Assembly: GCA_963969395.1 (NCBI GenBank)
Contig: OZ017795.1
Coordinates: 31,477,063 to 31,541,062, forward strand
Direction of reading: 5' to 3'
DNA: 64,000 nucleotides
Source: Pseudoscleropodium purum
Lineage: Eukaryota > Streptophyta > Bryopsida > Hypnales > Brachytheciaceae
Shown here: one piece after another, positions 18,790 to 53,932 of the stretch
Layout of the letters: every line of letters begins with the position of its first letter
Numbering within the stretch: the first letter of the stretch is position 1
Position numbers and translations under genes: made by a program
Notes under the pieces: generated by a model
What the model was told of the DNA's origin: nothing
Seen by the model: the letters and a program-made list of their open reading frames with translations, nothing else
Databases searched by the model: none

Positions 18790-19525
18790 TTGGACGCAAT
18801 TAGGTGTCGTAACCTTACCTTGTTCCGCATGCTCTCAATGCAGTCCACAAGAACCCCATCCACGTCCCCCTCCACGTCCCAACATTCATCCAATCCGGAA
18901 CCTTCGTAACGTCTTCCCAGTGGCCGTTGGAGCAGCCCGTCCGGAGGCGGAAACCCAGCCGATCCCCAAAGCGACAAACCCAGTCGCCGGCCCGCTCTTC
19001 CGCCCTCCCGGAGTCCTGGGCTGGGCCGGGCCGGGCCGGTCGCGGGATGGTCAACATTTTCAACACCCGTTCCGCGATTTCCCAAAGGCAAGCCCATAGG
19101 CTTCGTTTAGCAAGGCTGACTCTGACTTCGCCGTCTCTCTCCTTTTTTCGCTTCTTCTTCTTCATCGCCATAGCCCATCTCCCCAACCGGAACTCTCCCT
19201 TCTCCATCGCCTCGTGTTCCCTCACAACATCAAATCGCCACACTTGAGCTTTCTCTCGATCAACTTTGCAACAACAGCTTCGTTTGAGAACTTAAGTTTT
19301 CTCGCCATTGTGCCTTTTTCGCCTCACTTATTGTCATCGCCTGGGTCCCATCGTTGGCAATGTAGGCTCGGAACCTTGTGCGGGATCATGTTCGCGCTTT
19401 AGTTCTCCTTTGATCTCCGATTAATCTCTTACACGACTGTTTTAGGAGTTATTTTCGAGTGTTTGGGTTTTTTTTTTTGCGTTTCTGGGGTGTTTCTTGG
19501 GGAGGGGGTTGGGGCGAGTGGCGTT
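18790..19525 (+). promoter_or_regulatory. GC-rich promoter and 5' leader of the VQ gene
   Basis: The sequence switches from A/T-rich DNA to a CpG-rich island here. It contains several GGCC/GGGCC boxes around 19018-19045 and a pyrimidine-rich patch at about 19128-19165, a common feature next to plant transcription starts. No clear TATA box is seen, which is usual for such island promoters. Open frames on both strands here have no family signature and are best read as leader or GC-rich shadow frames. Confidence 0.55.
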
Positions 19526-20329
19526 ATGAAGCGAGGTGGAGGTTTTAGTGGTGGTGGAGGGAATGCGAATGGCCCAGGAGGCCTTCCATTATTATCCCCT
19601 TCCTCTCGAAAACTGCCTCCCCCCAGTCCTACATCTGGCTTAGGGTCGTTGTCCCTTAACGAGAAAGAAGCAACAAGCGCTCAGGAGTTTGCTTCGACGA
19701 CGACATTTGTGCAAGTCGACACATCCAGTTTCCGTGAGCTTGTGCAGAAGCTCACAGGCGCATCGGATTCCGACGTGGAGAAGCTGCCGATCACGTTACC
19801 CTCGCGGCAAGCTTCCCGCGGGGGGGTTGATGCTGCGGCTGCGGCGGCGAAGATGGACAACACGTACGGAGGCTTGATCCCGAAGCCCGTAGGCGATTTG
19901 AGCGCCAGACGGCCTGCATTCAAGCTCCACGAGCGGCGTCAGTCCAATCTACGGAAACTCGATGTCAAAGGCTTGGGCGCGGCTGCAGCCTTTCGTCGCG
20001 GCGTGGCGGGCTATGGCGGAAGCTCCCCGACACCCGATCTCTCCCCGAAGTTCCCTTCATGCATTGCCAGCCCGGTAACGCCTCTCTCCAAAGACGTGTT
20101 CGAAAGTGCTCATGCGCCAACGACGCCAACATCCTACGAGGGATACACAGACAGACTTATCCACACTCAGACAGACAGATATTCTTCGAGAGAGTCCTCC
20201 CGCAGCAGGACGGACATTGAGCCGCAATTTTTTTTGCATCCCCCGGCGGAACGGCCGAAGCAACAACAGCCTGAGCTGCTGTCGCTCTTCCCACTCACGT
20301 CGCCTCGCGTCTCGGAATCAAGTTCATGA
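19526..20329 (+). CDS. VQ-motif protein of the VQ4/VQ33 (MAPK-substrate) type, single exon
   Basis: The first in-frame ATG is at 19526, giving 267 residues to TGA; the open frame further upstream begins only with TTG, so it was not used. The VQ core FRELVQKLTG is at residues 69-78, preceded by FVQVDTSS. Further family blocks follow in order: FKLHERR (132-138), the SPVTPL block (182-187), an FFLHPP block (235-240) and a C-terminal LLSLFPLTSPRVS (251-263). This order is that of the Arabidopsis VQ4/VQ31/VQ33 group, nuclear proteins that bind WRKY factors through the VQ core and are phosphorylated by MAP kinases. Eight SP or TP sites are visible (for example S24, T169, S182, T185, S259). The usual KGFYLHPSP block is weakened. 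Plant VQ genes are usually intronless, as here. A role in stress or defence signalling is inferred from the family. Confidence 0.9.
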   Translation: MKRGGGFSGGGGNANGPGGLPLLSPSSRKLPPPSPTSGLGSLSLNEKEATSAQEFASTTTFVQVDTSSFRELVQKLTGASDSDVEKLPITLPSRQASRGGVDAAAAAAKMDNTYGGLIPKPVGDLSARRPAFKLHERRQSNLRKLDVKGLGAAAAFRRGVAGYGGSSPTPDLSPKFPSCIASPVTPLSKDVFESAHAPTTPTSYEGYTDRLIHTQTDRYSSRESSRSRTDIEPQFFLHPPAERPKQQQPELLSLFPLTSPRVSESSS

Positions 20330-26215: not shown

Positions 26216-27487
26216 TTACAAAGAAAACGCAAAGGGTTGGAGAATGATACCAAAAACCTTGTAATCGTGTTGTGAGCCTTCTTGAGCCTCTTCTAATGTT
26301 GTAGCTAGGCATTGCCGTTCCAAGTCAACAAGACGAGATTTAAGATTTGTATGCTCAAAGAATATTTGAGTTGCATCATCCATGGTGATTGTACTCGGTT
26401 GTATCATTCATTTCCAAAGTGTAGTGGCTCTTCTATATTCCATGCCACCTTACCTAACGGAAAGAACCCAAGAAGCAGATGGGATGTATTGTTTGGAGTG
26501 CAGCATTGGAAGGAGTGTACAAAGAAGAGTTTTGCCTAATTGTTTTTCAAGTTTGAATCTACAAAAGGTAGCAACTCTCTCAATGAGATTTTTGTGTGTC
26601 AAAATGATATGATTTTTGGCAAAAGGATTTCCATATTTAACATACTCCTCTACACACCCTTGTCAATTTGCTCTAAAGTCAGATTCCGCTTAATACAATC
26701 AAAGTAATCTTCTCCTTTGTCCTTGATGTAGTAACCCAACATACCTATGTAAGTATGGAGACTAATATTGCATAGTGTTTTACTGAGGATATGGTAACCA
26801 ATAGGGGCATCTCCTAGTTTATTCCAACTAAGATAGGTTTTGATCAATTTACTAACCACAACAGCAACGGTAGCCATAATTCTATAAACCATCTGTAAAT
26901 GAAGCCTCATCATAGTACCACCTTTTTCAATTGCACAAAGGCTAGAAACACATTCATTTTTGAGAAAATTTTCCATTGTTTTCAAGTGATCAAGGGAGAT
27001 GTTTGAGCTGCAAACAAATTTTTTTATACTAAGATCTAGTAGCTTGCGCTCTAGTTGCTTTTGTTTTGCAATAGGTTTTGAGATAGTAGTCTTTCTTAGA
27101 AGAAGAGCTTTTCTAAGTCTAGTGCTCTTAATAGCGTTGGTACCTACTCCAAGAGCTGCATCAACTTTATGTGATGCTCTAGGGTTTCTTGTGGTAGGTT
27201 TGGTTGTTAATCCCATCCTTGTGTCGTGTGCAGTAGAACAAGTAGCTATGGTAGTAAGAGCAGGAAGAACAACTATGGTAGCATTGGCAACAAGCACGGT
27301 AGCAGGGGCCAGGGGCAACACTGACACTAGGAGATCCAACATTGACGACATGAGCAAAAGGAACAACCACGACAACATCAACAGCTAGAGGAGCTACACC
27401 AGCAATAAGAGTAGGAATCGTCTCTATTTGCAATTGCCAACTAGAACGGGCAGCAACATTAAGAGCTTGTGACAAAGGAAGTCCCAT
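26216..27487 (-). pseudogene. decayed mobile-element-type gene, family not identified
   Basis: A coding trace starts at an ATG at 27487 and moves through several frames to 26216. The frame from about 27320 to 26653 is long and carries a conserved-looking stretch, GYHILSKTLCNISLHTY then GMLGYYIKDKGEDYFDC, near its end. Past the stop at 26650-26652 the coding sense continues in another frame (EEYVKYGN..., then KNLIERV... and KLEKQLGKT). A final in-frame piece from 26407 has MDDATQIFFEHTNLKSRLVDLERQ, a likely coiled coil. Frameshifts and stops make it non-functional. The style resembles ORFs of large plant transposable elements, but I cannot place the family and assign no activity. No termini or target-site duplication were found around it. 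Confidence 0.45.
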
Positions 27488-32107: not shown

Positions 32108-32115
32108 AATGTACC
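32108..32115. repeat. hAT target-site duplication, left copy
   Basis: AATGTACC lies immediately before the element's CAGGGTTGAC end and is repeated exactly at 41936-41943. Confidence 0.92.
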
Positions 32116-32129
32116 CAGGGTTGACATGA

Positions 32130-32275
32130 CGTCCAGACGCGGACGCTGTGTCCGTAGCGTCCACTGACATTCGCGGTCCCCGCGGACGCAGCGTCCGCCG
32201 GGACCGCCCCGTCCGCTTGTCACCTCGTCCACCCCGCCCGTCCGCCCCGTCCGCCCCGTCCGCTTTGACGGCCCT
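32130..32275. repeat. left subterminal GTCCG array
   Basis: A dense run of GTCCGC, GCGGAC and CCCGTCC words, very CpG-rich against the A/T-rich background, lies just inside the left terminus. In hAT elements repeated subterminal motifs are transposase binding sites; that role is inferred here. Confidence 0.75.
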
Positions 32276-32499
32276 ATTTCCCCCTCCCGCCTTACCCAAA
32301 CTGCCCCGCGGTCACTCCCTTAATCTTTAAACCATTAAATGTTAAATGAAGTGCAATGGTTCGCGATTTGTCATTAAAACAATGTCTCTTATAAGTTGAA
32401 AGATTATAAAGTTTGACCATGAGTCCATGATAGTTTTGAAACTATGAAAAAATTCCAATTCATTTTCAGAAAGCAAACTAAAAAAGTTTGTGACTTCAA

Positions 32500-32517
32500 A
32501 TATATATATATATATAC
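32500..32517. repeat. (TA)n microsatellite
   Basis: About nine TA units inside the hAT element, downstream of the kinase-like gene's stop codon. Confidence 0.9.
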
Positions 32518-32713
32518 TATTTAAAAAATCGAGATCAACACAAATACAAACATAATCAATATGGGCAAAATATATTGAATTTAATATAGAATACCATACA
32601 TTGTGCACATTTGGCTAATTGTACATATAATTTTTTTCATTCCAACTCTATATTTCTAAACTAATTTTTAATGCATATATAACCTATTCAACTACTACTT
32701 CTATACTACCAAT

Positions 32714-34207
32714 CTAATATAAATGGCAGAAATGTTCATCTGGCATCGGCCAACGATATGTATTAGAAAATTGCGTAATTACATGGGCCAAACTAGTATT
32801 TTCATCGTCAGTCTTCAAAGAAATGCGCTTCAAGTAAGTATAAAACACTTTTGCAAAGTCATGAAAGGCAAATTGTGTCGCACTAGGTGTTTTAAGTAGC
32901 ACGTTGAAATACGCCTTTGACATGTTGTTTCCATTCATCCGCCGAGCAATTTTTCGAATGGCATACTCTTCTGACTTACGTGAATACATCGGAATGACTT
33001 CCACATCTGCACGTGCTTTATGCAAATATGCAATACATGGATCCACCCACCATCTCCTCTGCAAAGTCTGTTTCATCTCATTTGCTGATGTGAATGTGTA
33101 CAAAGACTTCATTGGCTGAGAAGCTAAGGTGGTCATATCCCAATCGCAAACTCCAATGTACACACACGACTCATCCTCTAGAATATGCAATAAGATGTTG
33201 TCAGTAGAAAGATCATTGTGCAAATGTTCAGTAAGATGCACTGCATACATTATATGCATAAAGGCCCATATCAGCTCTGTGCGCTTCTTCCGATATCGCC
33301 CTAAACGGTGAGCTTTTACAACCTCCTCTTCGGTTGGATTCGTATACATCAAACGGATTTGAATGTTGTCTGGAAAGTCCTTATCCATATTCAACATTTG
33401 TCGAAGAGTTCCACCATTCCACCAATACGCATAACCTTCACACGTCGTTCCGTGCACTGCAGCAAACCGTATCACACCCGCGTATGGAATTTGAACAGCC
33501 ATTGATTCGTTTTGATATTCTAACTTTGCAAGATCGGGTCGAGTTTGGTGGTGAATGGATTTCTTTGCTGCAAATTCCCAATAAGGAAGTACTCCTGAAC
33601 ATCCTTCAATATGGACCTTTTGAATCGTTGCATATCCACCTCTCATCATTCTATCATCAACAGCAATCACGCGTGCTGTATCTGGAAGTGCTATTAGGTG
33701 CCGTTTGGTCCTTTCCGCTTCAGCAACTCCATCATTGATTTTCCACCAACCAATTGAACCAACTCGATTGTGCTTTTTGGCGAATGGAGCACATCGCCCC
33801 CTAAACAAGTCCGCTTTCAAAATCACTTTTTCAAACTGGGCGTCATTGGGTCGATATTCCTTGCCATATTTAACCAAAATGACTTTGGAATTCCACAAAG
33901 CATCATGAACCTTGTTCTCCAAACATTTGGTGAAGTGCATTTTATGCATTTCGTCATGTCACTTCGCCACATTCAATGCATCCAACAACATCTATGTCAT
34001 GTCTACCTTGAATTTAGACACGCACTCCTCTTGATATTTGATGTACTTATTGTCTAAAGACAATGTTGTTTCCGATTCATAAAATTGAACGATGCGCTCA
34101 ATCATGAATTTTTTGCATTCCTCCGAAGGACTTTGGTGAGCTACCTCCAAGTTTGATGGTCCCTCTCCATGTTTAAGCTTCGCAACCTACTTCTTCCCCT
34201 TCGTCAT
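32714..34207 (-). pseudogene. protein-kinase-like gene carried by the hAT element
   Basis: The frame from ATG 34207 to 32714 is 498 codons including the terminal stop and has three in-frame stops: TAG at 34189-34187, TAG at 33994-33992 and TGA at 33961-33959. The stretch from ATG 33949 is open for 411 residues. Within those 411 are the landmarks of a kinase fold: a glycine-rich loop GGYATIQKV (104-112), a beta-3 lysine candidate in WEFAAKK (124-130), a hinge-like YWWNGGTL (175-182), the catalytic loop HNDLSTDN (244-251, in place of HRDxxxxN) and DWD (269-271, in place of DFG). The order and spacing fit a protein kinase, though a small-molecule kinase of the same fold is possible. It lies wholly inside the transposon, opposite in orientation to the transposase, so it is cargo. 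Whether it came from the host or is an old component of this hAT lineage is unknown. Confidence 0.75.
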
Positions 34208-34394
34208 CGTGACAAATGAAACTGATATAGATGAAAATTTCTAATTTAAATGTGAATTTCACGCACAAATGTTAAAAAAATTGACAACAAGGGGGCCCCA
34301 ATAAACCACTCTTGCCTTGCCTCGGAAAGGAGCCAATGGAGGATGAACCACCAAGCTCTCCGCTCCACCTTGAATTTACAAGGGGCAAAGCAAA

Positions 34395-34790
34395 AGTGAC
34401 AATGCGGACGGCCCGTCCGCCCCATCGGACGGCCCTAAACCGTCCGCCCGATCGGATGGGCCAAGGGTGGCGAACGGATCGGACGGCCACGGGCGGACAA
34501 ATCTGGCGTCCGTCCGATCGGACGGTCCAGGGGGGGGGGGGCGAGGGGCGGACACATCGGTCGTACCGAGGCGGATGGGTATCGGGGCGAACGGAGCGGA
34601 CAGGGCGGATGAGTATCGGGGCGGACAGGGCGGACGCCGGATCGGATGGACAGGGCGGACGGAGGACAGGTATCGGGGCGGATGGGGTCTGGGTGGATGG
34701 GGCAGACGGGGCGAACAGGGCGGACGGCGGACAGGTATCGGGGCAGACGGGGGTCTGGGCGGATGGGGCGGACGGGGCGGTTTGACCCTA
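34395..34790. repeat. internal GGACGG/GGGGCGGA array upstream of the kinase-like gene
   Basis: About 400 bp of CpG-rich words (CGGACGG, TATCGGGGCGGA, GGGCGGAC), including a short tandem array of a GGTATCGGGGCGGA-type unit between about 34575 and 34755. It sits about 190 bp before the start of the kinase-like gene on its 5' side. Frames on both strands here encode only low-complexity Gly/Arg/Asp or Pro/Arg text and are not genes. Confidence 0.7.
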
Positions 34791-35109
34791 AAGCACTCCG
34801 ACGTCCATATTTTGCACGATAAACAGAGGTCTTCATGGCACTGTATAGTCCAACTAACTTTTCATTCATTCAATGTAAAATTTGAAATTAAAAAAGGTAG
34901 CCTTCCTTTATAACCGAATTTATGAATTCTTGGTAAATGATATTTTTGTATAAAGATATGAGCTAAAATGTGCAAAAATTCACGAAAGGATTGCGACGTT
35001 TAATATATGTACCCAAATATTCAAGTTGCATTGTGTATAAAGCAATTGTAAGAAGGTAGTTGAATAAAAATTCTACTATTAAATTGAATTAGTTGATGTC
35101 TAATCACTT

Positions 35110-35240
35110 AGTAAACCGCTAAATGTCCAAGTCTTTGCAAGTGTGTTTTGGCTATCGAAAAAGAGCATGGACTTATAGTTATCCCCAATGAAGCAAATTG
35201 TTCTTTTTTCAAAATCTAACGGTATAGATGTTTAACCCCT
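35110..35240. repeat. dispersed repeat, copy inside the hAT element
   Basis: It shares a long diverged match with 42288-42410 in the same orientation, including GCAAGTGTGTTTT versus CCAAGTGTGTTTT, ACTTATAGTTATCCC versus GCTTATAGTTATCCC, and a common TATAGATGTTTAA end. Confidence 0.7.
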
Positions 35241-35642
35241 AAAGTTCTTTTCACTAAAAACACTTCAAAACTGCCATTAGTAGTGCAAATACCAAGTCTT
35301 GGAAGAAAAATACTTTTGGGCATATGTAACCGTAGGATCTTGTAGTAAATTAGTTGGAAAAGATGTGGAAAAATTTTTAGACAAATCCACCATTTGGATT
35401 GTAAGATACTAGATATTGAGTGTTTTATTTAAGGGGGCTATTCAATTATGTCTATTAATGAACAATTGGTAGGCTAACAAACCTAACTTAGCATGTATTT
35501 TAATATTTGTTGCAATTGTTTTAGGAATATTATAACATAATACTATTATAATATTCTTATAAATGATATAGTACTAAATCATTTCAAAATCAACAACATT
35601 TGAACACAATCTGTCAATCTTGTCTTTCATATTCCTTTAATG

Positions 35643-35667
35643 ATATATATATATATATATATATATA
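35643..35667. repeat. (AT)n microsatellite
   Basis: About twelve uninterrupted AT units, followed by further imperfect AT-rich sequence. Confidence 0.9.
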
Positions 35668-37587
35668 AATATACATATATAAAATATATTAGATAAATCA
35701 ACATGAACAAATCAATGATTATATATTTCATAGATCTATTCTTCATCAATCAAATAAGAGTGCATGTGCAAATATAGACAAAGATGGTTTCTCTATTTGT
35801 TCCCAAAAATTAAATAAACAAATAGAGAAAGATATGAAGTGAATGTTACTTGGAGAATTGAAGGGAAAGAAATTGAAGTACTCAATTGCATTTTATTAAA
35901 TTGGAAAATTGCATGTGGATGGCATGAATTAATCTTCATAGATGCTAAACTCATACGAGTTGCATTTCAACATTTATGATTTATGCAATTGATTGAATTG
36001 AAAGCTCTTGTAATTACATTTTCAAATTTTCGATTCAATCATTCAAATTTGCAAGAGTGTTTTATGATAGATTTATAACTTTAAATGTGAAAGCATTCAA
36101 TGCCTTTATGCGTTTGTTCATCAATATATTAATTTTAAATAAATAATATTTTTTTTTATAACATATGCATAAACCATTGCATTAAAAAAAACAAAAACTA
36201 AGAGCCAAGCCAAATAGGCTGGTCAAATGAAAAGAACAAGAGAACAAGAGCCCTACGAGAAAGCAAAGGAAAAAAAAAAAATATCAAATGGATTCAAAAG
36301 AAAGAGCAAGATGCATTCTTGCAAGACCGTAGAATACATAATGATTTCAAAATCCAAACACAAATATATTTTCTATTTCAATTAGAGTAAAAAATGAACT
36401 ACCCTGCTCTCAAAGATTGTACAATGTACACGTTATACAAAATGAACATATAACAGAAAGAGTAGAAGACATCGTTTATCATGATTGAAAACTGAAATGA
36501 TTTTTTCTTTCTATGTAGAATATTTTATGAAATGTAACAATGTATTTAATTATCATAGTAATTGGTAGAAATCTTTGTGCAATACATAGAAACATTTTAT
36601 TCATGTGGAGTTTTTTCATTTATTTAGGATTAAAATTGAAGTATTATACTCTACAAAGTACAAACTGAAAACAATACCATATACCTAAGTTCAAAAGTTT
36701 TCAATTGTTTCGTGAATTCATTTTGAAAACTCAAATGAAGAAATATTTTATAATCAATATCTTGTTCATTTGAATCATTTCAAAATTCGAATTCCGAATT
36801 CAATTCCTATTTATAATAGAAATTATGTTTGTCAATTTTTTAGATCTTTAAACAATGAACCCTCTTTTTTAAAATTAATATTTAAAAACATCTGAAATAA
36901 GAATATTGGAACTACCCTTCAAAATAAATATAGCACATGTATAAGTGTATAATGTATTCTACTCAACCAACTCAAGTAACAAATTTTTCTATGTTTTTAA
37001 GGAAAAATATAGCCATACATGATTTGAAAGTTAAAACATTGATTCTTTTTCTTTGTTTTCAAATCTAATCAAAATTTCATTAAAAAATATGAAAGACTCG
37101 ATATTCATTTGAAGATTGTGATGCACTTCTAATTAGAAATCACAACCTTTCATTAAATATCATGAGGTTGAAATCCATTAAACTGTTATTCTAATTATGT
37201 ATTGAGGCCTTTTTTTAAAATTTCATTTGCTTACGATGAAAAAGGAATTGATTATTTCTGCAAAACATTTGATTTCCTAATGAACTTTAAAAAAATCCCC
37301 ACTGTCTTCAGATCTTTTCAAAACCTATTTAGAATGATAATATAAGTAAATAATCCAAACATATTCAACTTAACCACATTCCCCTCATTCGTAAAACAAT
37401 TTAGGGGAGAAAAGAAAAGGTTTAGGGTAATTAGGGTATAGGGTTTAGGATTTACATTTTTTTTAAAAATAAAATGATAAATCAATTACATTGATCCTCA
37501 TTTAGCAGTGATTATTAGGCTGTTTTTTTTGGAAATGTTACCGCTCTTTTTGAGTAATATCGGCCTCATAGGATATTCCAATGGACA

Positions 37588-37790
37588 ACTGGGCGGACGC
37601 CGTCGGCGGTCAGTGTTTAAGTGGGGCGGTCGGCATGTCCAAAGTGCGGACGGCGTCGGAAGGCGGACAGTGCGGACAGTCCTGTCCGACCGCCCTGTCC
37701 GCCGCGTCCGACCCGTCCGGCCTGTCCGCCCGCCCCATTTGGCCTGTCCGCCCATCCGCCCGTCCGCTTCAGCCCCGTCCAGGCCGTTGC
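37588..37790. repeat. internal GTCCG/CGGAC array upstream of the transposase
   Basis: A CpG-rich block of GCGGAC, TGTCCG and CCGTCCG words occupies about 200 bp, ending about 50 bp before the transposase TATA box. It matches the subterminal blocks and the block upstream of the kinase-like gene in word content. Confidence 0.7.
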
Positions 37791-37842
37791 TTGTTTTTGA
37801 ATGTAAACCCTAAAAATGAACCTTAAATATTCTGGAGGGGAC

Positions 37843-37848
37843 TATAAA
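37843..37848 (+). promoter_or_regulatory. probable TATA box of the transposase gene
   Basis: TATAAA sits in GGGGACTATAAATG, directly after the GTCCG array and a telobox-like AAACCCTAAAA string (about 37805-37815). It lies about 250 bp before the ATG at 38096, a plausible leader length. Inferred from position only. Confidence 0.5.
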
Positions 37849-38095
37849 TGTTAGAAGAGAAGCTTTTGTATTCACTCTCGAAAAACCGAACGCTAAGATT
37901 TCCAAGGGCTATGAGCTTCAATTTATTGTGTCTCTTGCTTGGTAATGCATAGTTTGGTGAACGGGGGGCTTTGATTTTCAAAGCTTTGTGTGACTAATTT
38001 CATTGATATTGTATACATTGTCACGTTGTGGATTTCAAATTTAAAACATTCTATTGGTTTCTTTTGAAATTGAGGTAAAACATACACTTGTCAAT

Positions 38096-40203
38096 ATGGT
38101 GGCCAAACCGACGGGGGATTTTTCTCCTTCATATAGTGTGCAAGAGGATGGTAAAGTAAAATGTAGGCTTTGCAAAGCGATCATGTCAAGGAGGCTCAAC
38201 CGTATGTTCAGCCACTTAGGCTATTCTGGGTCTGAAGGTGTACGTGATAAAGGGGTGAGCCTTTGTTTATGATTATCAATGGCAGTTCGAGATTTATTTC
38301 GGCATTGCGAAGGAGTTTTTCCAAAACGCGTTGTAATGGACAATGTGAATGGCAACTCTGGCCCTTCAGATGTCCAAGAGTTTTCGGTCGGAAAGGCTGT
38401 GTCGCATTCTGACCACGAAGACTCTTGTCCAACGTCCAAAGAATTGGTATCAATGCTATGTGCCACAACTGAAATGACTTTGAGTACGGAAGCTTCTAGT
38501 GAACGTGAAACCCTGAGGGCATCAAGTTCTAGGCCTCAAAGGCAAGGCAGCTTAGTGAATGGGTTTGAAGAAGGTCATAGACGCAAATTACATTCAGTGT
38601 GGGCAAATTTTTTTTATTCGGCGAACATACCATTTTCCATGGCTCGAAACCCAGCTTTTAAAGAAGCAATGAAGAAAACAGCTGCGTTCGGTAGGCCATA
38701 CATTCCTCCCTCATACCACGACCTTCGGTACAAATTGTTGAATGAGGCGAAGACCAACATTCAGACACAGTTGAATGCACGGACGGAAGATAGCATTCGA
38801 AAATTTGGAGCAACATTGTCCATTGATGGATGGAGCTCCATGATTAATCGACCTCTCATCAATGCCATGCTTGTATCATCCGCAGGTGAAGAATTTCTTA
38901 GATCTGTGGATACAAGTGGTTGTGAAAAAAATGCGGAGTACTTGGCAGTTGTGTTGGAAAAGTTCATTAAACAAGTGGGGTCCAAGAACGTCGTGTTAAT
39001 AACTACGGATAATGCTCCTGTGAATCCGTCCGCATGGGATGTAATATCTGCAAAATATCCTCATATTTTTTACCAAGGGTGCATGGTACATGCATTGAAT
39101 TTGTTGTTGAAGGATTGGGCTGCACAGAAATGGATTGCTTCCAAATTGGATAAAGGAGTTCTTGCAGCTAAATTTATCAAGAAGAGACATATATCACTAG
39201 CTCTATTGCGAAAGTATTCGCCAAATCTTGGTCTCTTGATGCCTGGGGATACAAGGTTCGCCTCTAAATTTATTATGATGGAGCGTTTGACAAAATTGAG
39301 AGGAGCATTGGAACAAACGGTGGTAGATCCGCAATGGGTTGAGTATGTACATACTCTCAAGAAGAAACGTGGAGCCAAAGTCCAACCAAAAGACTTGGCC
39401 TTAGCGGTGAAGAAATTTTTCTTGATGACCATTTTTGGAATCGGTCCATCAATTATGTGGAGATGGTTGAACCAATCATATGTGCACTCAACGATTTGGA
39501 TTCAAAATCACCATGCATGGGGAAGGTGTTGCATATCATGAGGAAGTTAGAGAAGTATGTGAACGGATTACAAAGTCCACCATTTTGTTTGCTAGAAGAA
39601 CTTGCAATTCCATTGGTACAGTTTTTTTATGCTCGAAGAAGAATGGTGAACAACGATCTCCAATCAGCCGCAACTTTTTTGAATCCATACCTTCTTCATG
39701 ACAAAGAGCTAGTAGATGATGCGGATGCAATGTCAGGATGTAAGAAAGTTTTGGAGAGAATATATCAATCGGATGAATATGCAGCAGTGGTGAAGGAATT
39801 TGTGGCTTTTCGACACAAGAAATCTCCATTCCACAATATGTTGAATCCGGGAAATCAAATGTTGTCCGCACATGCTTGGTGGGATTTTAAAGGTGTATAT
39901 GGCAAGTTTATAGCTCCATTAGCAAAGAGGATATTGGCTCAACCGGTGTCATCATCTTCATGTGAACGGAATTGGAGCAACTATTCTTTTGTTCACAACA
40001 AATCTCAAAATAAATTGAAGCCGAAGAGAGCAGCGGATTTGGTGTACGTGTATACCAATTCCAAAGTATTAAACGCATCAAAGAAAAAAGATGAAAAAAA
40101 ATGGTATAATGATAATGTGGATTCGATGGAATCAGAGGATTCAGATAGGCCGACGTTAGAAGAGGATGATGACGAGGATTTGGAAAGGACCTTTCACCTG
40201 TAG
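38096..40203 (+). pseudogene. hAT transposase with BED-like finger, DUF659 and dimerisation domain
   Basis: The start is ATG 38096, because the open frame further upstream begins with TTG. The N-terminus has a CRLC pair and a downstream His/Cys region of a BED-type zinc finger, followed by an in-frame TGA at 38270-38272. From 38279 the frame is open and carries the DUF659 signatures LSIDGWS (first catalytic Asp, codon at 38825), LITTDNA (second Asp) and CMVHALNLL, the CxxH pair of hAT enzymes. A one-base frameshift in the T-run near 39415-39421 moves the sense to the next frame, which continues LDDHFWNRS and the C-terminal dimerisation block with SSSCERNWS (about 39955-39980). In an active copy this protein would excise and reinsert the element. 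The one stop and one frameshift inactivate this copy. Confidence 0.88.
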
Positions 40204-41448
40204 ATGGCGGAGATGACTTCAATCGTGCGACAGCATGGGGAGATGAAGACGTTATGGAAGGCTTTCCCGATTTGGTGAATGATACGCATGATTATCATCT
40301 AAACCACAAGGATGTCGTTCCCGACAATGCAAACGATGCATATACCTTTTGTGAAGACGAGGACAATGTAGAGGTACAAGAGAATCTACCTTCTTTAACT
40401 GCATATTGCAATGGAATGGGATTCTTGAATAGCAAAAACATTCTATCGGAAAAGGCAAACGCTATTGCCAAAGAGGTGAAAATCAATGAGAATGCTATTG
40501 GTGATGATGGGAGAAATGAAGAAGTTTTAATTTCTCAATCTCCATCTGTGGCATTAAATGTAGTGCAAGGAAACGACAAAAGAGAAGATGCGGTTATGGA
40601 GGTGGACGTTCCAAAAGATGTGGGCAACAATAGTGGTGATGAGGGGGAACCAAATATTGCGGTACAGAAAAATAGTGATTCAGTTGGGATGGCAGTCACA
40701 AATTCGGCAATTGTAAAGAGTGATAAAGGAAAAGAGCCAATGAAGTCAATTTTTGAAGTACCGAGATCTAGTGCTCTTTCACCAATACCGTTGAAGTCTG
40801 TTAGCACACGATTGAATGATTCTCAGAGCTTTGGATATGGAAAACGCCTAATGAACATTTCCAAAGAAATTTCTACAGGCGGTAATCTACGGAAAGTAGC
40901 GTCATCACCTACAAGCCTAAGTGATACGGATAGTGATCGGATGTCATTGGCATCTTTGCGTGATCGCATTTTAGGAAAAGGAATGGCGCAAGAACCCATC
41001 AAATCAACAAATGGCACTCTATTACTTCAAAAGAAAGCCAAAGTGGAGATAACCGTTCATGGACATGTCGACCCTACATCGAGATTGATGGTTCAAGAAT
41101 CGAGTAAGGTGAAAGCGAAAAGAGAAATGCAACCTTTTGCTATCTCTCCAGTGAAGAATAAGACCCCTCTTGATGAAAATGTTGCTACTTTGTCAAATAG
41201 AAAGAAAAGAAAGGTTCCTATTCAAAAAGCCTTTAATCGTTTTGTCAAAGTAAAAAAAGAAAAATTAAATTCGAAAGAAGGGAGTAAACCTATTTCGAGA
41301 GAAGACTTGAAGGAGACAACGATACTTGATTCCAATAATGAAAATGACTCCGACAATGAAGATGACTGATAATGAAGATTTTGAATGGAGAGCTGCAGGA
41401 GAGAGTAGTGAGGCTGAGGTTAAAGGAGATGTGGATTGGCGTCCATAG
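40197..41448 (+). pseudogene. long charged tail or second ORF of the hAT element
   Basis: Where the transposase frame stops at 40203, the neighbouring frame reads on without a break (PVDGGDDFNRATAW...) through an ATG at 40254 to a TGA at 41367. It then shifts once more and ends WRAAGESSEAEVKGDVDWRP at a TAG at 41446-41448. The product is rich in Asp, Glu, Ser and Lys, has no recognised domain, and contains basic clusters such as NRKKRKVP that could act in nuclear localisation. The acidic sequence before the transposase stop flows into it, so the simplest reading is a roughly 400-residue C-terminal extension separated by a one-base frameshift. A separate second gene starting at 40254 is the alternative. 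No function is assigned. Confidence 0.55.
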
Positions 41449-41804
41449 GAATTGTGGAGATGTGAATTTAGATGTTTGATTGTTTAGTTGCTCATGATAT
41501 ATGGAGCTCATATTGACAAATGACAATGGTTTCTTCAATTATTTTATTATTATTAAATTGTTTGTTTATTGATGATATACATCTCGCTGGATTTTAAAGT
41601 GATTTTGTTTCTAAATCAAAATGAAATTTAACAAAAAAAATTAAAAATATATTTCATATTTTAGCTTTTACATAAATAGTGATATACAACTCTATTGAAT
41701 TGCAATTGCAATATAAGAAAAATCCAAATCCAAATGACTTCACTCTCAATCTCTCATTGGTGAAAACAATCAAAACAAAAAACCCAAAACGGGTTTTCTA
41801 AGCT

Positions 41805-41917
41805 GCCCCGTCCGTCCGCCCCGCCCGTCCGCCTTCCAACGGCGGGAGGGACGCTGCATCCGCTAGCATCCGTGCGTCCGGACGTCTGGAAAACGGACGC
41901 TATTTTGGGGCGGACGT
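41805..41917. repeat. right subterminal GTCCG array
   Basis: CCGTCCGTCCGCC, GCCCGTCCGCC and GGACG words cluster just inside the right terminus, mirroring the left subterminal block. Transposase binding is inferred from the hAT family. Confidence 0.75.
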
Positions 41918-41935
41918 AGAGATTCGTCAACGCTG

Positions 41936-41943
41936 AATGTACC
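41936..41943. repeat. hAT target-site duplication, right copy
   Basis: AATGTACC follows the element's GTCAACGCTG end and is identical to 32108-32115. Confidence 0.92.
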
Positions 41944-44900
41944 AAAGAACGCAACATTTGAATACCGTATGCAATAGTTACAAAGGGTCAAAATTTATTT
42001 TGGTAAGTCTCTTAAATCATTTCTTTTGTATAGGTACATATTGATTTTGGAGATGTAAACATATTAATGGTGGTGGTTTTGCATATAATGGTGCATTTTA
42101 TATATTTGTTTTTTTTGAAGGGGAGCACCTTAAGTTAAAACAAATCCCTTGGTAGTGGAACTCACACATTCTTATTCCATACTCTTGTGTTTGTAGTCTC
42201 TGAATGCACATTTCCATTTGCATAGGGAAGGTCTCCACAAATAGCAAGGACTCAAATACTGAATTTTTGCTTTTTAACTGTGAATCCTTAAATGCCCAAG
42301 CCTTTCCAAGTGTGTTTTTTGTATGAAAAAAGAACATGGGCTTATAGTTATCCCTAGGGAAGCATATTATTTTTTCTTTTAGAATCTAACTATATAGATG
42401 TTTAAAAAGCTTGTTTATTAGAGTACAAATCAATTTTGAGTATAAAAATTGCATAGGAGTTGTGAGATTATAACAAGAGAAATGTATGTATCATATTTTT
42501 AGTATGATGTCTCTCCCCACAATGTTTGAGAAATTTGCATAAAAGAGTTTTTTTGGATTGGAGGTGACACGAACAACTAAAAATTGTGTTAGCACACTAA
42601 AATGCACTTCCAAAAATCTTAAGTGTAAACAAAGAGCTATCAAACTCATTACACAATCAACCTTGCAATTGTTGAAATGAATTTTTTTTTGTAAGCAAAT
42701 AACTCCAAATCAACACTTACATGTTTAAGTTTTCAATGGTGAAAATTATAAAAACATTTTACTCTTTCCATTGGGACCATTTTCAAAGCAAATGGATAAG
42801 TAGAATTTTTTTCAAATCCCAAATGAAGAGAAATTGGTACATTTTGCTCAAAGTCGGGAAATGAAGTAAAATTAGCAAGCTACACTCTTTCACTAATAGA
42901 CATATATGGCTTTGAAGACCTCCCAAAAATCAAATATTTACTTTTTTCAATGAAAATAAAAGTTTTCAATAGTTAACATTCAAAATTGCCAATAATTTTT
43001 TCTAAATGGTCAAAGAAAGTAAATTACCCAAAACAAAATGAGTTTGAAATTTGAAATTGAACATGTATGGTTGATTGAGTAGTTATGGATTAAATGCCAA
43101 ACCTACTAGCCCCTTGGATTGGGTTTCTTGGGAAACTTTGACCTTGCATTTGAAGTTATGAATGATTGCTTTTAGTGGGACTTGGCTCATTTAATGCAAC
43201 CAAGGCCAAAGGCAAGGTTCTGAAGAGCTTCTCACATCATTAGAAATTGGACACTACTTGTGTAAATTGCAAGACCAATTGGTGGTGGACGTACACTAAA
43301 CTTTTTTTTTTCAACTTATTCACATACTCTGTTGTTGTTAAGAGTCATCACCATCGATTCAAGCATTTTCAAGGGGAAATTAGAATACAAAATGAGCAAT
43401 GGAGGGCTGATTATGCAAGAGGGACCATTTTTGCTATAGGACTGTAGTGAGAATGTCAAGGAATTGCACTTGACTTGACTCTAGGGAATGTATTGTGTGG
43501 GGTGTATTTTGCCCATGAATATGCCCAAGGTTTTTATCCTTTGCAAAATGTGCCCTATATAGCAAGTTTTCTAGTACAAAATTCTCTTGTTAGGTGCTCT
43601 ACTTCATGCTAGCAATTATTTCAAGTAACATAGGAGCTTGCCTCTACCAACAATCCCTAAATTAGCTAAAACTAGACAAGTTTCTACCAAAAAACCATTG
43701 TACTAGTAGTACATTGTAAAAAAGGGCCTTTAATGGAGACATGAAAGCCAAAATTACAATAAACAATAGAATTTGATAGCCAATTTGCAACTTTCTCTAT
43801 ATTGAAATTAGCATCTAATTAGTTAGTTTTGTATTACAATTTTCTCAATAATCCTTCACAACTTGCAAAATCCTATCTTTCCATCTTTTTCTTTCATAAT
43901 ACTGACTATTAAGATAGCCAAAATTGATGCTTGTTTGTCTTGAAGGTAACATATTGCACTAAATTCCATAAACTAGTTATGGGATCACTAGCCCCTACAT
44001 CAAGGTCAAGTTTGATTGATTTCCTAAGGGTTGGTTGTCAGGTATTAACTTAATGATGTTTAAAGATTAATTTTTAGTCTAGGGTCAGAGGGAGATTTGA
44101 TTCTACATTTAGTAGAATTAGAGAAAATGAGGTAAAGGTTTGTCAATTTTGTTATCTTTTAAGGTGAAAACACCCAAAATCTATCAAAAATATGCTATTG
44201 AGTACAATGAAAAGGTTTTTTTTCAAGAATTTTTTTTGTAGGATTAGCAATTAAAAATCATGAATTAAAAAATTTATAATTTTTGGATATGATATCTAAT
44301 TACTAAGAATTTTCAAAGTAGAACTCCTTTAGCCATTGGAATTGTCACATAGCTTGGTAGATTTGCTCATACTAGGCATATAGATGTTGTAGTATCAATT
44401 TTAGTTTGTAATGAACAACAATGTAGTTACCAAATTAATCCAATTATTGGTCCAATAGGTGCATTATATGTTTTTACTTCACCTGAAAAAGGCAAGTTGG
44501 TCACCACAGAAATCAACTTTTTAGTATCATGAATCAATGCTTGAAAAACTTGAGCACTTATTGAAGGTCAAATTATTGTGCAAAGACCTTTCCATTTCAT
44601 GTGCAAAATTCTATAGATGAACATCTACACTTTTGTCTTACATTGAAGAATTCTTTGTCAACCATGAGACATTGCATGTCCATGACATCCTTCTAGGGTT
44701 AACAAGTGAAGCCATCCATTGAACCTTTTAGGTCCACAACATCCTTCTAGGATTAACATAAAGGTTAACATAATTGTATTTCATCTTTGCAACCTCAAAA
44801 ATCATTGCTCTATTTCCACAATAAGCTAGCTAGACATAAGTCATGTCAAATGACAATGAAGTTAAGTTGTGAGTCACCAAAATGGTCTATGAAGATAGGT

Positions 44901-52862: not shown

Positions 52863-53932
52863 TGACCTTGTTGACGAGGTCACTTTTTCGAGGGTTTAGG
52901 AGATCACTCAAATGGTTTCGGTTTTGATGTATGATTTTCATAAGATTGTTGTTCCAGGGTTTGAAACTTGAACTTGTTAACGAGGTCACATTCTTGGGTT
53001 CAGTATAGTCTTTCTAAGACAATTTCTAGTTTTTATGCATAATTTGAAATTCTTTCTACGGATTGCTGAATTAGACTAGAAAATGTTAACAAGGTTATTT
53101 TTTTGAGATTTCTGAAATCACTAAGACAATTTTAATTCAGGATTTATGTTTCGCTTTTTTTTGTAAAGACTACTGAAATAAATTGGAAAATGTAACCTCG
53201 TTAACAAGGTTACTTTTTCAAGGTTTTTGGAGATGACAAAGATAGTTTAGTTTTGATTTTAGGCTTCATTTTTTTCTTGCAGACTGTTGAAATAGATTGC
53301 AAAATGTGACCTTGTTAACGAGGTCACTTTTTCAAGGTTTAGAAAGATGACAAAGATTATTTTGTTTAGATTTTAGGCTTTGCTTTTTTTTGGAAGACTA
53401 TTGAAATAGATTGCAAAATGTGACCTCGTTAATAAGGTCACTTTTTGGAGTTTTTTAGAGATTACTAAAAGAATTCAGTTTTGACTTTAGGCTTCACTGC
53501 TTTGTCTTTTCATTGCTGAAATACATTGGAAAAACTAACCTCGTTAAAGAGGTCACTTTTTCAGATTTTTTAGAGATCACTCATATGGTTTCAATTTCAA
53601 ATTTAGGCTTCTCCATTTTTGCTACAGAGTGTTGAATTACATTGCAAAAAGTGGCCTTGTTAGAATTAGATTAGAAAAAATGACCTTGTTAACAAGGTTT
53701 CTTTCTTCAGATTTTTAAGAGATCACTCACACAGTTTAGTTTTGACTTTAGGCTTCATTGTTTTTTCTTAACATTGTTGAAATACATTAGAAAAAATGAC
53801 CTCATTAACGAGGTCAGTTTTTCAATTTTTCTAAAGACTCACTTAGAGAATCTAAACTTAAGTTTTAGGTTCAAAATGTATTTTTCCGATGCTTGCTTTG
53901 GGCTGAAAATGTAACCTTGTTAACGAGGTCAC
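52863..53932. repeat. ten-copy tandem array, unit about 114 bp, each with a 20-22 bp palindrome
   Basis: The consensus core TGACCTCGTTAACGAGGTCA is its own reverse complement. Cores lie at 52863, 52969, about 53078 (half lost), 53192, 53306, 53420, 53536, 53681, 53797 and 53911. Spacing is 106-116 bp except 145 bp before the eighth, where about 30 bp with an extra half-core is added. Between cores, each unit repeats a CTTTTTCAAGG then AGAGATCAC then TTTAGGCTTC pattern and ends with TTGAAATAGATTG-type sequence. The non-core parts are more diverged than the cores. Many copies mutate one arm only, so the palindromes are imperfect. Function is unknown. Confidence 0.88.

What the first reader, a model, noticed from the sequence alone, without database searches (positions are those of the whole stretch)
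32108..41943. hAT transposon with exact 8-bp duplication carries a divergent protein-kinase-like gene
Seen: AATGTACC on both sides, CAGGGTTGAC/CAGCGTTGAC ends, a hAT transposase on the plus strand and a kinase-like frame on the minus strand between the same ends. Known: hAT elements make 8-bp duplications and normally encode only a transposase. Inferred: a kinase travels as cargo, or is an integral component of this hAT lineage, for example acting on the transposase or a host factor. This is the best candidate here for an undescribed system.
Basis: partly seen in the sequence, partly recalled or inferred. Interest (0 to 1): 0.88.

Follow-up and report, generated by a model that had tools for sequence, protein, structure and literature searches.

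The report
Plant hAT transposon encoding a kinase
A cut-and-paste transposon present in hundreds of copies in what is probably a moss genome carries its own protein-kinase gene as a fixed second gene beside its transposase, which is unusual because such transposons normally carry only the transposase.

Summary
A 9,820-bp hAT element (32116-41935) lies between perfect 8-bp duplications, with a DUF659/hAT transposase on plus and a divergent kinase on minus; both genes are broken in this copy.

The kinase is part of the element. The window's genome (313 Mb, unnamed, probably moss) has 873 kinase, 513 transposase and 411 RING-gene 24-mer hits. Of 30 kinase loci, window included, 27 have a CAGGGTTGAC-type end at the same place with differing flanks. 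Twelve of 17 copies examined at both ends have exact 8-bp duplications. On scaffold C1, 34 of 46 transposase hits have a kinase hit divergently upstream at 3-9 kb (random 0.23).

Form A has kinase and transposase; form B has kinase, RING-type and Cys-motif genes and no transposase; an apparent larger form has both. Kinase internal branches look constrained (46 N:42 S:0 stop against 59:22:6.5), in a score-picked sample. Catalytic residues are mostly kept. Ten paper searches found no such hAT. The substrate is unknown.

The parts
32108..32115 (.). target-site duplication, left copy (AATGTACC)
32116..41935 (.). whole hAT element, form A, 9,820 bp
   Evidence: homologous complete copies L031 and L032
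32116..32125 (+). left terminal inverted repeat CAGGGTTGAC
32116..32330 (.). GC-rich subterminal array a (GTCCGC-type repeats, 7 against 0.28 in shuffles)
32714..34207 (-). protein-kinase gene, ~497 codons, three in-frame stops in this copy; longest open part 32714-33949
34400..34790 (.). GC-rich array b, upstream of the kinase gene (12 GTCCGC-type motifs against 0.57)
34791..37579 (.). AT-rich spacer between the two divergent genes; largely shared with other copies at 93-96%
37580..37800 (.). GC-rich array c, upstream of the transposase gene (8 motifs against 0.30)
38096..41369 (+). hAT transposase gene: N-terminal Cys/His finger-like stretch (my reading), DUF659, hAT dimerisation region, acidic/Lys-rich C-terminal extension; one stop and two frame changes in this copy
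   Evidence: other copies without internal stops have open frames of up to 1,155 aa
41800..41935 (.). GC-rich subterminal array d (3 motifs against 0.18)
41926..41935 (-). right terminal inverted repeat CAGCGTTGAC (read inward)
41936..41943 (.). target-site duplication, right copy (AATGTACC)

Best explanation
This is a decayed copy of a high-copy, multigene hAT transposon family in which a protein kinase is a fixed gene of the element. SHOWN: (1) kinase and transposase lie divergently between one pair of hAT ends and move as one unit with 8-bp duplications; (2) the same kinase is in a sister form B that has no transposase but carries a RING-type protein and a related Cys-motif (zinc-finger-like by my reading) gene; (3) in a score-picked sample of 30 copies, the kinase changed as under purifying selection on internal branches. 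INFERRED: the kinase is catalytically active and raises the element's success, most likely by phosphorylating either the transposase (its long acidic and Lys-rich tail is a plausible target) or a host silencing or repair factor. Because form B keeps the kinase without a transposase, I lean to an effect on the host or on the element's own locus rather than on the transposase alone. Form B would be moved in trans by form A's transposase at the shared ends.
Against: Only 14 of 30 kinase copies are free of stops, although they were picked by protein score. The selection sample is the top 30 of 101 scored copies (1,483 first-look candidates), which favours low dN on terminal branches. The transposase, which must work in some copy, shows no clear constraint in my sample (0.77 internal, P 0.18; 0.88 terminal, P 0.14), so the test is weak; that sample held a duplicate pair (L054/L055). 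The transposase frame is interrupted in L031 and L032 too. On C1, 20 of 70 kinase, 9 of 46 transposase and 8 of 24 RING hits have no listed partner, though exact-match lists miss diverged partners. DFG is DWG and the glycine loop is not canonical. No substrate, expression or activity data. Linkage in other species could not be tested.
Confidence: 0.72

Rival explanations
1. Old passenger: an ancestral hAT captured a host kinase once and then spread; the kinase is carried along without helping the element, and its apparent constraint is inherited or a sampling effect.
For: Only 14 of 30 copies open; sampling by protein score; the spacer travels along equally well.
Against: Internal branches have no stops where 6.5 are expected and N/S 0.42 of neutral. 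The kinase is kept in both A and B while the other genes differ. The wider family (39 full-length proteins, down to 25% identity) keeps the Lys, HxD Asp, Asn and DFG-position Asp invariant, in clusters of up to 126 members.
Confidence: 0.17
2. Macrotransposon: two neighbouring elements, one with the kinase and one with the transposase, moved once by their outer ends and were then amplified as a composite.
For: Four GC-rich arrays bound the two genes as if each were an element; an 8-of-10 end-like match stands at 37803 at the edge of array c. Forms A and B differ next to the arrays.
Against: No inner end has an exact duplication; 35 such 8-of-10 matches occur in the window; the spacer is shared by A and B at 93-96%. 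It could describe the remote origin, but not the present unit.
Confidence: 0.06
3. The kinase belongs to another transposon that repeatedly inserted into this hAT.
For: Kinase hits (873) outnumber transposase hits (513).
Against: The excess is of the size of form B (RING 411 hits). The kinase sits in the same orientation at the same distance from the same end in 27 of 30 loci, and listed kinase-transposase pairs are all divergent (20, with 0 same-strand and 0 convergent).
Confidence: 0.02
4. Form B depends on form A and A also profits from B's genes: a divided (multipartite) transposon.
For: Shared kinase, spacer and ends, complementary other genes, copy numbers of the same order. Loci with RING arm next to transposase arm exist (L054, L056).
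Against: The RING frame has 3-4 stops in 5 of 5 further form-B arms, with frame changes in two (L046, L048), and one stop upstream in the reference copy. No evidence that A needs B.
Confidence: 0.1

Closest known systems
hAT superfamily DNA transposons (Ac/Tam3/hobo; DUF659-type plant transposases)
   Same: 8-bp duplications, CAGGG-type ends, DUF659 plus hAT dimerisation region, subterminal repeats, MITE-like derivatives
   Different: Fixed divergent kinase gene; a form with RING-type and Cys-motif genes instead of the transposase. That hATs normally encode only a transposase is recalled.
Two-gene MuDR elements (mudrA/mudrB) and Spm/En two-protein elements
   Same: DNA transposon with a second element-encoded gene (recalled; PMC9168764, on barley MULEs, seen in search listing only)
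   Different: Other superfamilies; second proteins are not kinases (recalled)
Pack-MULE / transduplicated host gene fragments (recalled)
   Same: Transposon carrying a host-type gene
   Different: Here one gene at the same place in copy after copy, with signs of constraint
Mos1 transposase phosphorylated by host PKA (PMC3902898; title and start of abstract seen)
   Same: Kinase control of a transposase
   Different: There the kinase is the host's, here the element's own; whether it acts on the transposase is unknown

Membership tests
hAT superfamily | 8-bp target-site duplication | tested here: met
   exact in 12 of 17 copies examined at both ends; L003 6 of 8 and L015 7 of 8 bases, L016 not matching, right end not found in L020 and L004
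hAT superfamily | short terminal inverted repeats beginning CAGGG | tested here: met
   27 of 30 left ends within one mismatch of CAGGGTTGAC or CAGCGTTGAC
hAT superfamily | transposase with hAT C-terminal dimerisation region | tested here: met
   PF05699 E 8.9e-8, 32.3 bits against cut-off 21.4; DUF659 E 1.6e-32
hAT superfamily | catalytic acidic triad and conserved Trp of the RNase-H-like domain | not tested
   residues not mapped
hAT superfamily | transposase is the only gene (usual, not strictly defining; recalled) | tested here: not met
   kinase and, in form B, further genes
protein kinase superfamily | kinase fold | tested here: met
protein kinase superfamily | catalytic Lys, HxD Asp, loop Asn, DFG-position Asp | tested here: met
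   invariant in 39 homologues; 30, 30, 30 and 28 of 30 copies; present in the window copy
protein kinase superfamily | DFG motif and GxGxxG loop | tested here: not met
   the six commonest motif variants shown (30 of 30 copies) hold DWG in 23, none DFG; DWD in the window; loop reads RGGYATI
protein kinase superfamily | curated Pfam kinase score reached | tested here: inconclusive
   window 12.1 bits and P0001 24 bits, both below cut-off 31.7; 38 of 39 homologues match at E<=0.01
protein kinase superfamily | phosphotransfer activity | not testable with these tools
   needs protein
Pack-MULE-like captured fragment | host gene fragments that differ between copies | tested here: not met
   the same gene aligns over all 1,494 nt in 28 of 30 loci and over 1,453 and 1,305 nt in the other two; loci were chosen by a long match

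The most novel reading that the evidence does not exclude
A eukaryotic cut-and-paste transposon that encodes its own signalling kinase for its mobility, in a modular four-gene family (kinase, zinc-finger-like gene, RING-type gene, transposase) whose GC-array-bounded modules are lost or kept separately, giving complementary forms A and B that share the kinase and may depend on one another.
Probability: 0.3. Interest if true: 0.92.

Novelty: new variant of a known kind. Interest (0 to 1): 0.76.

Why it matters
Phosphorylation of a transposase by a host kinase is known (Mos1, listing). Here an element brings its own kinase, which makes it directly testable whether a DNA transposon can control its activity, or its silencing by the host, through a kinase that it encodes. 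The kinase family has TE-like copy numbers (clusters of up to 126 members; the two with eukaryote names are Ceratodon purpureus, one named as a protein-kinase-domain protein), so moss kinase counts may be inflated by it (inference).

Tried and rejected
Second hAT end pair around the kinase alone: none with an exact duplication in 30-44 kb. End-like matches of 8 of 10 bases lie in array b (34626, 34651, 34716) and at the edge of array c (37803); 35 such matches occur in the window.

Relatives in viral and prokaryote contigs: none confirmed.

RING domain of form B: PF17123 E 2.7e-5, 24.2 bits, below its cut-off 27, so 'RING-type' only; the other two form-B frames had no Pfam hit at E<=0.1.

Complete larger form: its ends were not recovered, so it may be nested copies. 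The right-hand piece L076 (printed) reads by eye like an antisense RING gene of a neighbour; I made no alignment.

Literature: ten searches listed no paper on a kinase-encoding hAT; only open-licence PMC papers are held. I opened no paper.

Full report
CHECK. The transposase is certain. The kinase frame is weak by Pfam (E 0.12) but aligns end to end with a 499-aa homologue. This copy is dead: three stops in the kinase, one stop and two frame changes in the transposase.

THE KINASE FAMILY. 85 proteins at E<=0.001, 26-71% identical to the window frame; most have no informative name, three clusters name an organism: two Ceratodon purpureus and one 'Bacilli bacterium' bin. A profile of 39 finds 97 (only 7,995 candidates scored). 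In the 39 full-length proteins the catalytic Lys, HxD Asp, loop Asn and DFG-position Asp are invariant. The AlphaFold model of P0001 (pLDDT 85.5) is a kinase fold with an added N-terminal helical domain. By sequence only one PDB chain, listed as arginine kinase (6vvg), passes E 0.001, over a short stretch. No relatives were confirmed in viral or prokaryote contigs.

THE OWN GENOME. The window lies in a 313-Mb, 52-contig genome, unnamed; moss is my inference from the named homologues. Kinase search: 101 scored of 1,483 candidates; transposase: 100 of 1,342. 24-mer hits with up to 2 mismatches: kinase 873, transposase 513, RING gene 411, controls 0. The right subterminal 20-mer has 1,637 exact hits, control 0, so there are also many copies without these genes.

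ANATOMY OF COPIES. Of 30 kinase loci (window included), 27 have the left end within one mismatch at the expected place; L008, L025 and L030 do not. By the sequence beyond array b, 19 are form A, 9 form B, 2 unclassified (L007, L030). L031 (9,702 bp, AGGACGGG) and L032 (9,496 bp, TTACTTAG) are complete form-A elements with exact duplications, an open 505-aa kinase frame (stop to stop) and an interrupted transposase frame. Eight more form-A right arms: transposase in 8 of 8, exact duplication in 5 of 8, 6 of 8 bases in L003, none in L016, right end not found in L020. Form B, complete in L033+L035: 11,651 bp, TATAAAAC, with kinase, two minus frames of 242 and 135 aa, the shared spacer, and a plus frame of 1,075 aa with a RING-type stretch. 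The 135-aa frame and the start of the RING gene are paralogous (36% over 127 aa, E 5e-23, one stop inside the aligned RING stretch). Five more form-B right arms: B arm in 5 of 5, transposase in 0 of 5, exact duplication in 3 of 5, 7 of 8 bases in L015, right end absent in L004; all five have stops in the RING frame.

IS THE KINASE ALWAYS THERE? From the transposase list I took every sixth row (17 rows); two (rows 44 and 80) were not fetched because their kinase was already listed. Two of seven transposase loci examined (L054, L056 of L050-L056) show the RING arm directly upstream of the transposase arm: an apparent larger form, whose ends I could not recover. On C1 and C40, 3 of 64 exact RING hits have a same-strand transposase 4.7-5.3 kb downstream. 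On scaffold C1, exact 24-mers only: 34 of 46 transposases have a kinase divergently upstream at 3-9 kb (random 0.23); 36 if four kinases are added, 37 up to 16 kb; convergent 0, same strand 0. RING: 16 of 24 within 3-12 kb; convergent 0, same strand 1. 20 of 70 kinases have no listed partner, 9 of 46 transposases and 8 of 24 RING hits no listed kinase; the lists hold exact matches only. Of 32 kinases on C1 and C40, 26 have a listed transposase or RING partner.

SELECTION. 30 kinase copies, 1,494 columns; only L013 has a gap against the window; L007 and L028 align over part of the gene. With a neutral spectrum from 168 changes in the 3' flank: internal branches 46 N, 42 S, 0 stop against 59.1, 22.4, 6.5; terminal 426, 269, 24 against 482.5, 182.7, 53.8; P 4e-5 for internal S and 0.001 for internal stops. 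The transposase in 16 copies: internal 42, 24, 5 (ratio 0.77), terminal 251, 124, 25 (ratio 0.88), neither significant. So the kinase looks more constrained than the transposase, but both samples are small and chosen by score, and L054/L055 are a duplicate pair that puts shared stops on an internal branch.

MECHANISM. Shown: one mobile unit, kept kinase, two forms and an apparent third. Inferred: activity and substrate. If the kinase only served the transposase in trans, form B would have no reason to keep it open; 6 of the 9 form-B kinases are free of stops (L002, L004, L005, L010, L015, L019), against 8 of 19 in form A. That favours a benefit local to the copy or through the host. The GTCCGC arrays stand at both ends and upstream of both genes (33 motifs in the element, 1 in the rest of the window); I infer transposase-binding sites that may also regulate both genes and serve as recombination points where modules are lost.

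KNOWN OR NEW. It is a hAT by the tested features. A fixed kinase gene in a hAT was not found in ten searches of open-licence papers (listed under Tried and rejected). I rate it a new variant of a known kind.

Noticed in passing
window 26650-27381 (-): Frame with a Replitron HUH endonuclease domain (PF21859, E 2.8e-10): a second, different mobile element in the window.
   Followed up: no
window 19463-20329 (+): VQ-motif protein gene (PF05678, E 1.8e-11), a normal plant gene.
   Followed up: no
G000 C44:13714574(-)/13728151(+), C49:12646667(-)/12671550(+), C43:14674863(-)/14716611(+), C44:22708944(-)/22753664(+) and others: Transposase copies with identical scores lie as inverted pairs some 13-56 kb apart (kinase pairs): inverted duplications, either an assembly fault or a product of aberrant hAT transposition.
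   Followed up: partly
L004 455-733, L028 574-735, L043 686-993: MITE-like elements of 160-310 bp with the same ends (within one mismatch) and exact 8-bp duplications.
   Followed up: partly
window 35120-35235 and 42289-42405: 117-bp repeat, 82% identical, once in the element's spacer and once just outside its right end.
   Followed up: no
protein P0002: A 70% identical kinase is filed under a 'Bacilli bacterium' metagenome bin (IMZ40_01335): probably plant DNA in a bacterial bin.
   Followed up: no
protein P0037: A Ceratodon purpureus kinase cluster of 126 members with locus tag KC19_VG055000 on a 110-Mb contig; the tag suggests the V sex chromosome (inference).
   Followed up: no
window 53084-53851: Cluster of internal repeats 73-80% alike.
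   Followed up: no
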